Shown here in pieces: positions 6,616 through 18,998 of a DNA stretch of 64,000 nt (position 1 is the stretch's first letter; each line of letters starts with the position of its first letter). The DNA is from Scytolyngbya sp. HA4215-MV1. Lineage in GTDB: Bacteria > Cyanobacteriota > Cyanobacteriia > Leptolyngbyales > Leptolyngbyaceae. A model generated the notes under the pieces. It searched no databases. It had not been told where the DNA came from and saw nothing but the letters and a program-made list of their open reading frames with translations. The stretch lies in the NCBI GenBank assembly GCA_019359045.1, contig JAHHIA010000002.1:552401-616400 (forward strand). Reading direction: 5' to 3'. A program made the translations under genes and the position numbers.

Positions 6616-7131
6616 CTATTGTTCACATTCGCATCGAATTAGATTATTGTCAGTTGCTTTACATCCAATCTGCTTTTGATATGCCAAAATTTGAGCCGTT
6701 TTTGCTTTTTGGCAACGCTTTGCTTCTCTACCCTGGCGGAGTAAGTAATCACATAACTTCTCGGCAGAATACGGCTCAATTGTAATATTGAAATGAAAAT
6801 ATTGAGCATGTAAACACCCGCCTTCCGGTTGATTTTCGGGATGTATACCAATCTCTTGAAAGTCCTTTTCGGTAAGCCAGATAAAATCAATATTTTGATT
6901 TTTTGGACTCCGATATTCGCTTAGAGAAGCTACAATACTATAAAATTCACGATCCGTATTGACTAGCCAAATACTGTAAAGATTATGTGGCTCTCTAAAT
7001 AGTTTTTCAGCAATAATCTTTGCACGTTCTTCTAGAGTACTGCATCCTTCAGGGTTCCATCGAGCAAGGCTATCAATTTTCCGAATGTAAGCTGGAGTCT
7101 CAATACCGTATTCTGATAAGGTAGGTAACAT
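6616..7131 (-). CDS. Hypothetical protein, third gene of the TIGR04255 operon
   Basis: This 171-aa protein is not recognised. It is soluble, with an N-terminal region IETPAYIRKIDSLARWNPEG, an alternating strand-rich centre (NLYSIWLVNTDREFYSIVASL, NIDFIWLTEKDFQEIGI) and a C-terminal part rich in Lys and Cys (REAKRCQKAKTAQILAY, then IGCKATDNNLIRCECE). The three late cysteines could bind a metal but no standard finger spacing is visible. It lies 25 bp downstream of the 220-aa gene on the same strand and shares the AT-rich composition of the operon, which differs from the neighbouring genes. Only a weak AGG precedes the ATG, which would fit translational coupling. Confidence 0.65.
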   Translation of the reverse strand: MLPTLSEYGIETPAYIRKIDSLARWNPEGCSTLEERAKIIAEKLFREPHNLYSIWLVNTDREFYSIVASLSEYRSPKNQNIDFIWLTEKDFQEIGIHPENQPEGGCLHAQYFHFNITIEPYSAEKLCDYLLRQGREAKRCQKAKTAQILAYQKQIGCKATDNNLIRCECEQ

Positions 7132-7156
7132 ACCTGGAACAAGTTAAAGGCAATGA

Positions 7157-7819
7157 TTAAAGATTTTTCAGTGCTTCTTCAGCATAGTTCCGGATATAAA
7201 GATCTGGCTCACGCACAGAAGTAAATCGACCTAATGAGTTCCGGATTGGTGGAATATTCATCTCATCTGAGAGAATCACCAGTGCATCGATAATAGCAGC
7301 CTTGATAGCACGTCTTTGACTGCTGGGAAAAAGCTTTAAAATTAAATTAAATCTTTCCTGTACGGGAATCGCTGCTGCACAAGCAACTCCTTGAATTAAA
7401 ACTTCCCAAAAATCATCTAGGTTCGATAAACTTTGAGTCTCCGATCTAGATGCTAATAAATTAGAAGCTTCTAGATATCGAGCAGTCTCCTGAAAAAGAT
7501 GGACTTCCGTACATTCTGCCAATAAATCAACAGCGCCTTCATAAGCATCTGCAATACCTCTTTTTTTGCTCCAGATTAAGATTGCTAAGACAGACTGCCA
7601 TGATTGAATTGTCTGAAAAACACGCTTCCTTTGCTTAGCTCGCTGAACTTGAGAAGCTAGAAAATACTCACGAATCGACAAATCTGGATCACTTTCTTGA
7701 TAACGAGAGTCAACTGAAGTAGTTTTCTGAGAACTGTAAGACTGAGACGAAAAATCTTTGCTTTCAATATCAACTAATATTGAAAGCGTAGAAATGGTTT
7801 TATTTACTGTTTTAACCAT
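7157..7819 (-). CDS. Hypothetical helical protein, second gene of the TIGR04255 operon
   Basis: The product is 220 aa from the ATG at 7819, which has AGGAG 11 nt upstream; a GTG at 7831 is possible but sits against that AGGAG. The ATG start overlaps the 3' end of the TIGR04255 gene by 16 bp. After a Ser-rich N-terminal 50 residues the protein is strongly alpha-helical (FQTIQSWQSVLAILIWSKKR, AVDLLAECTEVHLFQETARYL, RAIKAAIIDALVILSDEM) and ends with DLYIRNYAEEALKNL, which looks like a HEAT-type helical repeat. No catalytic motif, signal peptide or membrane helix is visible. The tight overlap implies translational coupling and a shared function with the gene upstream. Confidence 0.65.
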   Translation of the reverse strand: MVKTVNKTISTLSILVDIESKDFSSQSYSSQKTTSVDSRYQESDPDLSIREYFLASQVQRAKQRKRVFQTIQSWQSVLAILIWSKKRGIADAYEGAVDLLAECTEVHLFQETARYLEASNLLASRSETQSLSNLDDFWEVLIQGVACAAAIPVQERFNLILKLFPSSQRRAIKAAIIDALVILSDEMNIPPIRNSLGRFTSVREPDLYIRNYAEEALKNL

Positions 7820-8562
7820 TGGAATCCCCACTCCTGCTTAGCACTTTCATGAATTAACTCTAAAAAGGCATGAACAGTATAGTTATGAGCTGTATCAAAC
7901 CAATCTTTCAATACGAGATCTGCATTCAAACTACGAGATGTTAATTCGAAAAATATTACCAAAGAATTATCTTCGATTTTAATCTTTTGATTAAGAGAAA
8001 CTGCCAAAGTTCCTTGGTTATCTGGTAATGCAAATTCTAAGTCAGAATTACAAATCTTGGGCTTATCCAAAAAGCCATTCCACGCTTTGCCTGCAAACGT
8101 AAAGAATTTGTGTGTATCTCCTGGATCATGCCAACCAAATGTTGCATCAATTTGATTAAGATAAGTCAGCTCGTAATGAGTGGGTTGTAAAGGTAATCCA
8201 CTCAGTTCTAGCCACCAGTTTTGGAAAGACTGCCATTCCTGTTCAAATCGGGGATAAATTTCCTCAAAATGCGGATATTCCTCAATCTCACTTTGACGAC
8301 GCCAATTGTAAAGGAAACGATTTGATTGTAATTGAAGCAACTGTCGCTTGTCAGCCGACTCAAACCAGACTCGACGGAGGCTTGGTAGGGGAACTAGAGG
8401 AATTTCACCAAGTGGAGGACGATCTAGCGGAGGCAGGGGAAATCGTTTTTGGATTTGCTGCCAATATAGACCAAAATGGACCGCTGAAAACTCCGGAGCA
8501 CTAAACTCGACTCCGCAGACTACTTCTGTTAATGGGGATTTCGTGAATCGCGCGAGCGCCAT
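7804..8562 (-). CDS. TIGR04255 family protein, first gene of a three-gene operon
   Basis: This 252-aa protein opens with FTKSPLTEVVCGVEFSAPEF, the typical start of TIGR04255 proteins (a sporadically distributed bacterial and archaeal family without known function). Later parts, including HYELTYLNQIDATFGW and the C-terminal DLVLKDWFDTAHNYTVHAFLELIHESAKQ, fit the family's C-terminal pattern in which residues around the helix precede a Trp-rich end. Length is normal. It heads an AT-rich operon with two unknown proteins, overlapping the second gene. Patchy distribution, foreign-looking composition and tight gene packing are features shared with defence or toxin-antitoxin cassettes, but nothing in the sequence proves that role. 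Confidence 0.75.
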   Translation of the reverse strand: MALARFTKSPLTEVVCGVEFSAPEFSAVHFGLYWQQIQKRFPLPPLDRPPLGEIPLVPLPSLRRVWFESADKRQLLQLQSNRFLYNWRRQSEIEEYPHFEEIYPRFEQEWQSFQNWWLELSGLPLQPTHYELTYLNQIDATFGWHDPGDTHKFFTFAGKAWNGFLDKPKICNSDLEFALPDNQGTLAVSLNQKIKIEDNSLVIFFELTSRSLNADLVLKDWFDTAHNYTVHAFLELIHESAKQEWGFQWLKQ

Positions 8563-8636
8563 CTGTGCAATTGCCCTGAATAAGGAATCACTATACTTTC
8601 TAGATTACTCGCAATCTAGGTCATAACAGGAATTCA

Positions 8637-16418: not shown

Positions 16419-18998
16419 CTACCCGTTGATTCTTTGCTCCAATCCTGCTTTCGCTTTCTGCGCCCACTCATGCTCCGGAAACATGCGCAGCAAATCTTCT
16501 AAATCCTGAATCGCAGCCTGAATTCGCGCCTGGGGTGCGCCTCGATTCAGGGCATCTTGATAGAAGTGCTTCATTTGCGCCAGGTTGCCAGCCGCCAGAT
16601 GGTAGAGTGCCAGATTGAATGTGTTGTTCCAATGTTCTGGTTCTTCGTCGTATTCTTGTTGAGCGATTTGAATGGCACGATCGAAATCGGCTTTGGCATT
16701 GTCAGATTGATTGAGCACTAAATAGGTGAGAGCGCGATAGTGCAAACACCAATCATTTTTAGGATTCAAATCAAGAGCATAAGTAAGATCCGAAAGAGCT
16801 GCTTCATAATTTTTAAGCGCTAAGTAAACTACTCCACGATTAACTAGAGCAAATAATACTCGTGAATTAGATGCGATTACTCGATTCAAATCTTCAAGCG
16901 CTTTTTCATAAGAACCTATTCTAAAGAGTAGGACTCCACGATCCATTAATATCCATTCATGTCCTTCAATGGACTGAATCAATTCCACAGCTTGGTTATA
17001 TGCTTCACGTGCTTCTTCATGTAATCCCAGTAAATAGTAAGTTTCTCCTTTACTTGCAATTGCCCAAGCATCTTGAGGATTTAATTCAATTGCCCGATTA
17101 AAATCTTTCAGTGCATTATTATATTGTTGTAAATCTTTGTAATTCCAACCTCGACGAACCAGAGTCCAACCATTTTTAGGATCAAGCTCAAGTGCCTTAT
17201 TCAAATCTCGCAGTGCATCTTCATAACGCCCTAGTCGATGATATATTGACCCTCGACTTGCTAATGGCTTTGTAAATTCAGAATCCAGAGAAATAGATTC
17301 ATCTAAGTCCTTCAATGCCTCTTTATGACGGTGAAGCAAGCGATAGGAATCTCCCCGCATAAATAAAGCTACAGCTCTCATTTGTGTCTCCAAATCAGGA
17401 TGTTCTAGTACATCTGTAAATATTGAGGCAATTACCTTGTTCTTATCTTGCCCCATGTACACTTTATCTAAGCTACTAATTAAACGCTTGCCCCAGAAAT
17501 TCAACTCATTCACTTCTATATCTTGACTCGCTTGACACATTATTTCTGCGTAACGACGTGATAATAGCCTGGAGTGTCTAAGTGAGGCTAAAAAAACGTT
17601 AAAGCTTTCCAAAATATAATTCTGTTGTGCTTGGCATAAAGAGTGATAAAAAGATTCCAATTTATAATTTTGCCAATCGATGTCTCTATATTTTTGACCT
17701 GTCGTCAACTGTAATGGCTTCCTTTGCTGGTTGTAGTAATCTGCCAGCTTACTATGAAGTTCTATCCATTTATGTGGAGAAATTAACCGCTTATGACGCA
17801 GCATTTGAGTACGAGCAATATTATGGTATGCCCAACCATCTATACGTTGTTCCACAAAAGGCATTTCTCGTAGCCAGTTAAAGAGTTCATCAGCATCCTC
17901 TTCTCCATGCAAAACTGCAATAACATCTCGGTTGAGGATACGTGGCAAGGCAGCATCCAGAGCTACTTGGCGGTATTTAGGATTATCTACCCACTTTAAA
18001 AAACGCTCAACTGCTGTACCGCTAGGATCACCGATCTGGTCAGGGTCGTTGGGGCTTTCGGCTGCTAGCGTTGCCACTAACAAAGGTAAGCAACCAGACA
18101 AACGTAAAATTACATCAACAACTTGGGGGTTGGTGATGTCTTTACGATCGAGATACTGAATTGCTTCCGCTTCCGTAAACGGATTGAGTGGAATCCGAAT
18201 CATTGCCGTTTCATAATCTGCCCAGTGATTTCGGTCTAGCTCCTCCCGTCCCGCAATCACCCCAATCAGATTCAGCGGCAAATCTCCATAGCGCGATTCC
18301 AAAATCTCGCGCAACCAACGATCCAAAAAGTCTGCCGTGCGTTCGTAAACATCAAAAAACAAAACCAGACTCGTCTGCTCTGCCAGCTTCTCCAACCCTT
18401 GCAAAAACAGCGGCGTTAGCACCTCCACTGGCTCATTCACCAGCCGCACTTCGTCCTTATTGCCCAGCTTCCGCGCTACATAAGATGCCCACTCCCCCGC
18501 TTGCGAAGTCATGCCTTCCTCATCCAGAAATGGCGTAACCGCACCACTGCCGGGAATTTGCTTTGCCAACCCCAACCCCGCCTTCGCCACCGACTTACCC
18601 AAAAACGCTGAAAAGCCTTGGGGTGCTTCCGGGTCTGCTTCCAATTCCTGCTTCTTTTGGCGATAGACCTTGTAGCGTTCGGCAAACGCTTCCAACGGAT
18701 GCCCCTGCTGCGCTAACTGCTCTGCCAGTCGTCCCATCGCCTCTGGCACACTGGTTTCCGAGTCAGTAGTCAGGGCTGTGATGCACCCTGCATCTTCTGC
18801 CAACTTGCGAAACTGCCGCAACAGCGTACTTTTGCCCACGCCGCCCTGTCCCCAAACATTGAACAGAAACCGCCAGCTTTCCGGCGGCAGCTTCAGGTTG
18901 TAGCGAAACTGATCCAGGTGGGCTTCCCGCCCGACGAAAATAGTTTGCTGCTGTTGCCGGAGAATGTCTTGGCGACTGGGCTTCTTGGGCGGGGTCAT
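16419..18998 (-). CDS. STAND-type ATPase with C-terminal TPR repeats
   Basis: The 859-aa protein has a short N-terminus, then FVGREAHLDQFR leading into a P-loop module with Walker A GQGGVGKST (residues 50-58) and a Walker B-like SLVLFFDVYER near 212-222. A winged-helix/linker part follows, and residues about 550-835 form some seven to eight tetratricopeptide repeats (for example ASRGSIYHRLGRYEDALRDL and ALVNRGVVYLALKNYEAALSDL). STAND ATPases act as inducible scaffolds or ligand-gated switches; in bacteria many take part in signalling or antiphage defence, but those usually carry an N-terminal effector, absent here. The ATG is preceded by a pure pyrimidine tract rather than a Shine-Dalgarno. 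Base composition in the TPR part is AT-richer than in the P-loop part. Confidence 0.9.
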   Translation of the reverse strand: MTPPKKPSRQDILRQQQQTIFVGREAHLDQFRYNLKLPPESWRFLFNVWGQGGVGKSTLLRQFRKLAEDAGCITALTTDSETSVPEAMGRLAEQLAQQGHPLEAFAERYKVYRQKKQELEADPEAPQGFSAFLGKSVAKAGLGLAKQIPGSGAVTPFLDEEGMTSQAGEWASYVARKLGNKDEVRLVNEPVEVLTPLFLQGLEKLAEQTSLVLFFDVYERTADFLDRWLREILESRYGDLPLNLIGVIAGREELDRNHWADYETAMIRIPLNPFTEAEAIQYLDRKDITNPQVVDVILRLSGCLPLLVATLAAESPNDPDQIGDPSGTAVERFLKWVDNPKYRQVALDAALPRILNRDVIAVLHGEEDADELFNWLREMPFVEQRIDGWAYHNIARTQMLRHKRLISPHKWIELHSKLADYYNQQRKPLQLTTGQKYRDIDWQNYKLESFYHSLCQAQQNYILESFNVFLASLRHSRLLSRRYAEIMCQASQDIEVNELNFWGKRLISSLDKVYMGQDKNKVIASIFTDVLEHPDLETQMRAVALFMRGDSYRLLHRHKEALKDLDESISLDSEFTKPLASRGSIYHRLGRYEDALRDLNKALELDPKNGWTLVRRGWNYKDLQQYNNALKDFNRAIELNPQDAWAIASKGETYYLLGLHEEAREAYNQAVELIQSIEGHEWILMDRGVLLFRIGSYEKALEDLNRVIASNSRVLFALVNRGVVYLALKNYEAALSDLTYALDLNPKNDWCLHYRALTYLVLNQSDNAKADFDRAIQIAQQEYDEEPEHWNNTFNLALYHLAAGNLAQMKHFYQDALNRGAPQARIQAAIQDLEDLLRMFPEHEWAQKAKAGLEQRING

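What the first reader, a model, noticed from the sequence alone, without database searches (positions are those of the whole stretch)
6616..8562. Compact AT-rich three-gene operon headed by a TIGR04255 protein
The sequence shows three minus-strand genes with a 16-bp start/stop overlap and a 25-bp gap. The composition is visibly lower in GC than both flanks. TIGR04255 is known as a sporadically distributed family with no assigned function, and the other two products (helical HEAT-like and Cys-ended) match nothing I recognise. Sporadic distribution, tight coupling and foreign composition together are what one sees for defence or toxin-antitoxin cassettes. This is inference; no nuclease, protease or toxin motif is visible.
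Basis: partly seen in the sequence, partly recalled or inferred. Interest (0 to 1): 0.6.

Follow-up and report, generated by a model that had tools for sequence, protein, structure and literature searches.

The report
TIGR04255-headed three-gene toxin–antitoxin-like cassette
Three tightly linked foreign-looking cyanobacterial genes belong to a widespread, sporadic family of mobile cassettes in which one conserved protein of unknown function sits in front of an exchangeable antitoxin–toxin pair, which gives an orphan protein family its first testable role.

Summary
In detail: three minus-strand genes (TIGR04255 7804-8562; g2 7157-7819; g3 6616-7131), tightly coupled and AT-rich. Window-type g3 was found in 4 of 291 cyanobacterial genomes; in all ten full loci read it sits behind g1-g2, in different surroundings. 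Other TIGR04255 genes head similar cassettes with different, exchangeable g2-g3 pairs. In three sister types g3 is a recognised toxin-type domain (PIN, HEPN, zeta). There the C-terminal part of g2 matches the antitoxin-position gene of stand-alone pairs lacking TIGR04255, while its N-terminus is extra (HEPN, zeta) or replaces a ribbon-helix-helix DNA-binding domain (PIN). I read the locus as a tripartite toxin-antitoxin-type module: g3 toxin (weak ADP-ribosyltransferase-fold signal), g2 antitoxin with a Ser/Thr-rich docking extension, g1 a dedicated chaperone or sensor for g2. It resembles SecB-TAC systems such as CmdTAC, but g1 is not SecB and the extension is N-terminal. Toxicity, neutralisation, the role of g1 and phage defence are untested, and no defence-island enrichment was seen. 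For the window's own g2/g3 the roles are inferred from position: no stand-alone pair of that type was found.

The parts
7804..8562 (-). g1, TIGR04255 family protein, 252 aa; conserved first gene of the cassette; proposed dedicated chaperone/sensor of g2
   Evidence: NCBIfam TIGR04255 93.9 bits vs cut-off 30; AlphaFold model pLDDT 82.8, pTM 0.84, duplicated beta-alpha-beta-beta-beta-alpha
7157..7819 (-). g2, 220 aa, no known family, overlaps g1 by 16 bp; proposed antitoxin
   Evidence: found in the same 4 of 291 genomes as g3; role inferred from stand-alone homologues of other cassettes' g2
7685..7819 (-). Ser/Thr-rich N-terminal stretch of g2 (about residues 1-45), proposed g1-docking extension
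   Evidence: S/T content of first 45 residues of g2 proteins 22% vs 13% in the rest over 29 loci; 23% vs 14%, p=2.4e-4 with one representative per class. Boundary in the window protein is inferred, not mapped
6616..7131 (-). g3, 171 aa, proposed toxin; invariant R17, W25, S53, H113 across near and distant homologues; C-terminal CxC in near homologues
   Evidence: Alignments A5, A12; AlphaFold model pLDDT 86.8, pTM 0.82; all 12 structural matches with Z>=2 are ADP-ribosyltransferase folds, best Z 4.9

Best explanation
The locus is one member of a modular, horizontally moving family of tripartite toxin-antitoxin-type cassettes. g3 is the toxin, probably an enzyme with an ADP-ribosyltransferase-like fold (weak evidence). 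g2 is its antitoxin, carrying a Ser/Thr-rich, probably disordered N-terminal extension. g1 (TIGR04255) is a dedicated partner that binds this extension and keeps g2 folded, stable and neutralising. When g1 is drawn away or altered (for example by a phage protein or stress), g2 is lost and g3 is freed to stop growth. Shown here by computation: the cassette structure, its sporadic and mobile distribution, the exchange of g2-g3 pairs behind g1, toxin-type domains as g3 in sister cassettes, and stand-alone homologues of sister g2-g3 pairs without TIGR04255 and without the same N-terminus. Inferred: toxicity, neutralisation, g1-g2 binding, the trigger, and the transfer of these roles to the window's own g2/g3.
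For: (1) g1-g2-g3 stay together in order in all ten full loci read: the window, G155, and eight loci found with a g3 profile in 84,980 species, one of them the same Pseudanabaena locus as G191. Flanks differ, e.g. type I restriction genes in one, HemB in another. (2) g3 relatives, near and distant, were found only next to TIGR04255: 6 of 6 genomes in a 249-genome profile search (loci). (3) Exchange: TIGR04255 occurs in 28 of 291 cyanobacterial genomes, usually followed by an overlapping g2 and a close g3; g3 is PIN (27.7 and 43.3 bits, cut-off 23.6), HEPN (33.6, cut-off 22), zeta toxin on a Vibrio plasmid (46.8, cut-off 22.3) or uncharacterised families. (4) PIN type: residues 42-79 of g2 are 71% identical to the tail of a Nostoc protein with a ribbon-helix-helix-like N-terminus, and stand-alone PIN genes follow small proteins with the same P-x-L-S-D-x-A-x-x-R-x-x-I-Y tail. 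(5) Zeta type: g2 residues 85-177 are 35% identical to a 125-aa Rhodococcus protein directly before a zeta toxin without TIGR04255. (6) HEPN type: g2 of 198-215 aa matches, by its C-terminal part, 110-130 aa proteins directly before a HEPN gene without TIGR04255. In that family an extended antitoxin (161-221 aa) occurs where a gene lies close upstream: TIGR04255, an unrelated 230-aa gene, or a CHAT protease. (7) g2 N-termini are Ser/Thr-rich across unrelated classes. (8) SecB-TAC precedent: addiction extensions are variable, graftable onto other antitoxins, and an N-terminal graft also made reporter proteins chaperone-dependent (PMC5105189); CmdTAC couples such a system to an ADP-ribosyltransferase toxin and phage sensing (PMC11618068).
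Against: No stand-alone pair of the window-type g2-g3 was found, so its TA roles rest on position. The fold match of g3 is weak (best Z 4.9; Foldseek has nothing significant), and no Pfam ADP-ribosyltransferase family matches. g1 shows no SecB match, and its best structural neighbours are guanido kinases/McsB (Z 8.7), from which no function follows. No common motif was found in the g2 extensions. Five cyanobacterial loci have g1 plus an HTH-type g2 and no recognised g3. The HEPN g3 proteins read R-N-x-A-D-Y where nuclease HEPNs usually have R-x4-6-H (own knowledge), so their activity is uncertain. No defence-island enrichment.
Confidence: 0.58

Rival explanations
1. g1 is the sensor and g3 the effector of an abortive-infection system, and g2 is an adaptor needed for activity rather than an antitoxin; no neutralised toxin exists before infection.
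For: A conserved front gene with exchangeable effectors is also the layout of sensor-effector defence systems (own knowledge); sporadic and mobile distribution; two of the cassettes lie near restriction/modification genes.
Against: Sister g2 proteins share their C-terminal parts with the upstream partner of stand-alone PIN, zeta and HEPN genes, the classical antitoxin position.
Confidence: 0.17
2. g1 is the transcriptional regulator of a three-component TA operon (as in omega-epsilon-zeta or paaR-paaA-parE), taking over autoregulation from the antitoxin.
For: In the PIN cassette the ribbon-helix-helix DNA-binding half of the antitoxin is missing; weak structural likeness of g1 to TATA-binding proteins (Z about 5.5); a 7-bp-arm inverted repeat lies upstream of g1 in the window.
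Against: g1 proteins are acidic (median pI 5.0, net charge about -11); no HTH profile in g1; XRE-type g2 keeps its own HTH; inverted repeats upstream of g1 are not clearly more frequent than chance (4 of 39 at p<=0.05).
Confidence: 0.12
3. The three genes are an ordinary, non-conflict accessory operon (metabolic or regulatory), and the toxin domains in sister cassettes are coincidental neighbours.
For: No toxin motif recognisable in the window's own genes; flanking genes in the window look like housekeeping genes.
Against: Three independent toxin-type families occur in the same third position, with antitoxin-like g2; g1 is absent from the 14 control genomes and sporadic.
Confidence: 0.06

Closest known systems
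SecB-dependent toxin-antitoxin-chaperone (TAC) systems, incl. Mtb HigBA1-SecB(TA) and CmdTAC
   Same: Three-gene module; common third protein; exchangeable TA pairs; antitoxin with a variable extension absent from stand-alone homologues; in CmdTAC the toxin is an ADP-ribosyltransferase
   Different: g1 is TIGR04255, not SecB; extension is N-terminal, not C-terminal; no experiment shows chaperone dependence or phage sensing here
Classical type II TA modules (VapBC-like PIN, HEPN pairs, zeta toxins)
   Same: g2-g3 of sister cassettes are homologous to such two-gene pairs in the same order and coupling
   Different: Extra front gene g1; the antitoxin N-terminus is replaced or extended; the window's own g2-g3 has no known two-gene relative
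Hyperpromiscuous antitoxin domains (Panacea, PanTA; PMC8832971)
   Same: One conserved protein family shared by many unrelated toxin domains
   Different: There the shared domain is the antitoxin itself; here the shared protein is a third component and g2 changes with g3
DarT / Tpt1-type ADP-ribosyltransferases
   Same: Fold of the g3 model resembles them weakly (Z 4.9 Tpt1, 4.1 DarT); invariant Arg on the first strand
   Different: No detectable sequence similarity; no DarG-like macrodomain antitoxin seen in the cassette

Membership tests
TIGR04255 protein family | Score above NCBIfam curated cut-off over the full model | tested here: met
   93.9 bits vs 30, model positions 1-252 of 252
Type II TA module (cassette family as a whole) | Toxin-type domain preceded by an antitoxin homologue in a tight operon | tested here: met
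   PIN, HEPN and zeta sister cassettes with g2 matching stand-alone antitoxin-position partners
Type II TA module (window g2-g3) | Recognisable toxin and antitoxin homologues | tested here: inconclusive
   No family for g2; g3 has only a weak fold match
Type II TA module | Toxin inhibits growth and is neutralised by direct binding of the antitoxin | not testable with these tools
   Needs expression assays
SecB-TAC systems | Third component is a SecB homologue | tested here: not met
   g1 has no Pfam match at E<=1 and matches TIGR04255 instead
SecB-TAC systems | Antitoxin carries a C-terminal chaperone-addiction extension | tested here: not met
   In sister cassettes the extra or replaced part of g2 is N-terminal and the conserved antitoxin part C-terminal
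SecB-TAC systems | Antitoxin stability and folding depend on the third component | not testable with these tools
   Needs experiment
ADP-ribosyltransferase superfamily (g3) | ART fold | tested here: inconclusive
   All 12 VIA matches with Z>=2 are ART folds (Tpt1, DarT, SdeA, cholera toxin A), but best Z is 4.9; Foldseek E>=0.15
ADP-ribosyltransferase superfamily (g3) | R-S-E or H-Y-E type catalytic residues | tested here: inconclusive
   R17 on the first strand and S53 on the second are invariant in 11 homologues; no invariant third catalytic acid identified
Known anti-phage defence systems (PADLOC-DB 2.0.0) | Match to a PADLOC protein model | tested here: not met
   0 families for g1, g2, g3 at E<=1
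Three-component TA with separate repressor (paaR/omega type) | Third protein is a DNA-binding regulator | tested here: inconclusive
   g1 is acidic and without HTH profile, but DNA binding was not tested

The most novel reading that the evidence does not exclude
TIGR04255 defines a new, SecB-unrelated class of antitoxin-dedicated chaperone or sensor that works through an N-terminal docking extension and can be plugged in front of at least five unrelated toxin-antitoxin pairs across several phyla; the window's g3 is the founding member of a new ADP-ribosyltransferase-like toxin family.
Probability: 0.33. Interest if true: 0.82.

Novelty: new variant of a known kind. Interest (0 to 1): 0.63.

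Why it matters
TIGR04255 is a sporadic bacterial protein family without an assigned role; no paper in the held library mentions it. If the model holds, it is the shared front end of a polymorphic toxin-antitoxin system, analogous to but unrelated to the SecB chaperone of TAC systems. Each of its many g3 neighbours would then be a toxin candidate, including three uncharacterised families found here. It would also suggest that antitoxin control by a dedicated partner has arisen more than once: the HEPN pair is found behind TIGR04255, behind an unrelated 230-aa protein and behind a CHAT protease, in each case with a lengthened antitoxin. Simple co-expression assays in laboratory strains would decide it.

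Tried and rejected
Plasmids: no window-type g3; other TIGR04255 types are on plasmids of four phyla. Sequence search of solved structures found nothing useful for g1 or g3. BFVD fold search for g3: nothing significant. SecB was not among the structural neighbours listed for g1; this is no proof that the folds differ. Homology of window-type g2 to the g2 of distant g3 relatives was not detected, although the g3 proteins are related (87.6% probability, E 3.5e-6). The LYR-type g3 family is not detectably related to window g3. A shared motif in g2 extensions was not found (one input row, the window's, was corrupted by alignment gaps). Inverted-repeat operator upstream of g1: not clearly above chance overall. 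Defence-island test: 86 flanking vs 86 control proteins gave no clear difference, low power. Empty-site test: the 581-aa left-flank gene is present in related genomes without a cassette in the stretch read beside it, but the right flank differs there, so no clean empty site was seen. Identity percentages are distorted by gap characters in the reference; those are used instead.

Full report
Observation. g1 (7804-8562, minus, 252 aa) is a full-length TIGR04255 protein (93.9 bits, cut-off 30). g2 (7157-7819 from ATG, 220 aa) overlaps g1 by 16 bp, and g3 (6616-7131, 171 aa) follows after 25 bp. GC is 39.2% against 48.6% for the window, a value reached by 1.1% of equal-sized stretches, and GC3 falls to 0.27-0.34. 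g2 and g3 match no known family convincingly. The flanking genes in the window look like housekeeping genes.

Distribution. Single-protein searches of 291 cyanobacterial genomes found g2 and g3 each in four genomes, the same four, side by side. A g3 profile scanned against 84,980 species returned eight loci, all cyanobacterial. All eight, like the window and G155, carry g1-g2-g3 in that order with overlaps or short gaps and with different flanks. Some loci are the same organism seen twice (L016/L023 and L015/L027), so the ten loci are the window, G155 and the eight. A wider g3 profile that includes distant relatives (related at 87.6% probability, E 3.5e-6) found six of 249 genomes, each with g3 behind TIGR04255 (loci). 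The family is thus a real, sporadic, moving unit.

Exchangeability. The TIGR04255 profile itself is present in 28 of 291 genomes, and in none of 14 control genomes. Reading about 32 loci shows that most TIGR04255 genes are followed by an overlapping g2 and then a close g3, but the g2-g3 pair changes: window-type and its distant relatives (7 loci), a 'TQ-x-CDL' family (6), an 'LYR' family (6, loosely defined), HEPN (2), PIN (2), an HTH-type g2 with no recognised g3 (5), and unclassified (4). On plasmids of Pseudomonadota, Actinomycetota, Deinococcota and Cyanobacteriota similar layouts recur, including a zeta toxin in Vibrio. PIN, HEPN and zeta matches exceed Pfam's cut-offs.

What g2 is. The key evidence comes from sister cassettes. 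For the PIN type, g2 of L049 (79 aa) matches, over residues 42-79 only, a Nostoc plasmid protein with a ribbon-helix-helix-like N-terminus (71% identity). Stand-alone PIN genes in other genomes directly follow small proteins ending in the same tail. For the zeta type, Vibrio g2 residues 85-177 match a 125-aa Rhodococcus protein immediately before a zeta toxin, with no TIGR04255 beside it. For the HEPN type, g2 (198-215 aa) matches over its C-terminal part proteins that directly precede a HEPN gene without TIGR04255. In that family the antitoxin is 110-130 aa in the loci without a close upstream partner, and 161-221 aa where a gene lies close upstream: TIGR04255 (2 loci), an unrelated 230-aa gene (3 loci, two nearly identical) or a CHAT protease (1 locus, 142.5 bits). 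One further locus (L110, 154 aa, start uncertain) does not fit neatly, and L097 has a short, doubtful ORF just upstream. So g2 is best read as an antitoxin whose N-terminus is specialised for a partner. Across classes the first 45 residues of g2 are Ser/Thr-rich (22% vs 13% in the rest; 23% vs 14%, p=2.4e-4 with one representative per class; stand-alone partners 16%). No common motif was found. The published SecB addiction regions likewise show no significant similarity to each other, can be grafted between antitoxins, and also made reporter proteins chaperone-dependent when fused N-terminally (PMC5105189).

What g3 is. The AlphaFold model of the window g3 is good (pLDDT 86.8, pTM 0.82). Foldseek gives nothing significant in the PDB or in viral models. 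In the second look by VIA-align only 12 of 1000 chains reach Z 2, and all 12 are ADP-ribosyltransferase folds: Tpt1 (4.9, rmsd 3.1, 89 aligned), DarT (4.1), SdeA (3.8), cholera toxin A (3.1). Values below 8 can reflect a common arrangement, so this is a lead. An invariant Arg (R17) on the first strand and Ser (S53) on the second across 11 homologues would fit an R-S-x active site, but the third residue is not identified and no Pfam ART family matches.

What g1 is. The AlphaFold model (pLDDT 82.8, pTM 0.84) is a duplicated beta-alpha-beta-beta-beta-alpha unit. Its best structural neighbours are guanido kinases and McsB (Z up to 8.7, rmsd 4.2, 191 aligned), then TATA-binding proteins (about 5.5); no function follows from this. 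g1 proteins are acidic (median pI 5.0, net charge about -11), which argues against a DNA-binding regulator. Because g1 is constant while g2 and g3 change together, and because g2-g3 homologues exist without it, I infer that g1 serves g2, as SecB-like chaperones do in TAC systems. In CmdTAC that chaperone is the phage sensor and the toxin an ADP-ribosyltransferase (PMC11618068).

Limits. No stand-alone window-type g2-g3 pair exists in the data, so the roles of the window's own genes are by analogy. Toxicity, neutralisation, g1-g2 contact and any phage response are untested. Flanks of cassettes in 13 genomes show no clear excess of PADLOC matches over control regions, and in the window itself the cassette does not sit among recognised defence genes. 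Phage defence therefore remains a possibility only.

Verdict. The locus is a tripartite toxin-antitoxin-type cassette of a previously unassigned kind that would work like, but fails two defining features of, SecB-TAC systems.

Noticed in passing
L101:2184-3446 and the genes that follow it: A CHAT-domain protease gene (142.5 bits) lies 20 bp before a lengthened (221 aa) HEPN antitoxin and its HEPN gene: possibly a protease-triggered toxin-antitoxin module.
   Followed up: partly
L102:1996-2685, L103:1848-2531, L104:1996-2685: An uncharacterised ~230-aa gene, unrelated to TIGR04255 by sequence, sits 9 bp before an extended HEPN antitoxin (161-167 aa): a second possible front-end partner for the same toxin-antitoxin pair.
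   Followed up: partly
L032, L035, L039, L042, L050, L054, L058, L059, L060, L065 third genes: A widespread uncharacterised g3 family with an N-terminal QG and a T-[QH]-x-C-D-[LI] motif, no Pfam match, often paired with an XRE/HTH g2 on proteobacterial and actinobacterial plasmids.
   Followed up: no
L019:8199-8879: The g2 of a second PIN cassette contains a STAS-like DUF4325 domain (54.3 bits), unlike the g2 of the other PIN cassette.
   Followed up: no
window 8600-8619: Inverted repeat CTAGATT-6-AATCTAG 37 bp upstream of g1; borderline by shuffling (p about 0.05-0.06).
   Followed up: partly
window 7760-7787: A 12-bp stem hairpin followed by an AAAGATTTTT tail lies inside the start of g2 on the coding strand; could be chance.
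   Followed up: no
window 16419-18998: An 859-aa minus-strand gene overlapping another AT-rich stretch begins like an NTPase with a P-loop (GQGGVGKSTLL): possible STAND/NACHT-type ATPase (sequence only).
   Followed up: no
L073:298-597 (Nostoc sp. UHCC 0302 plasmid unnamed8): A ribbon-helix-helix antitoxin-like gene without a PIN gene directly after it (orphan antitoxin?).
   Followed up: partly
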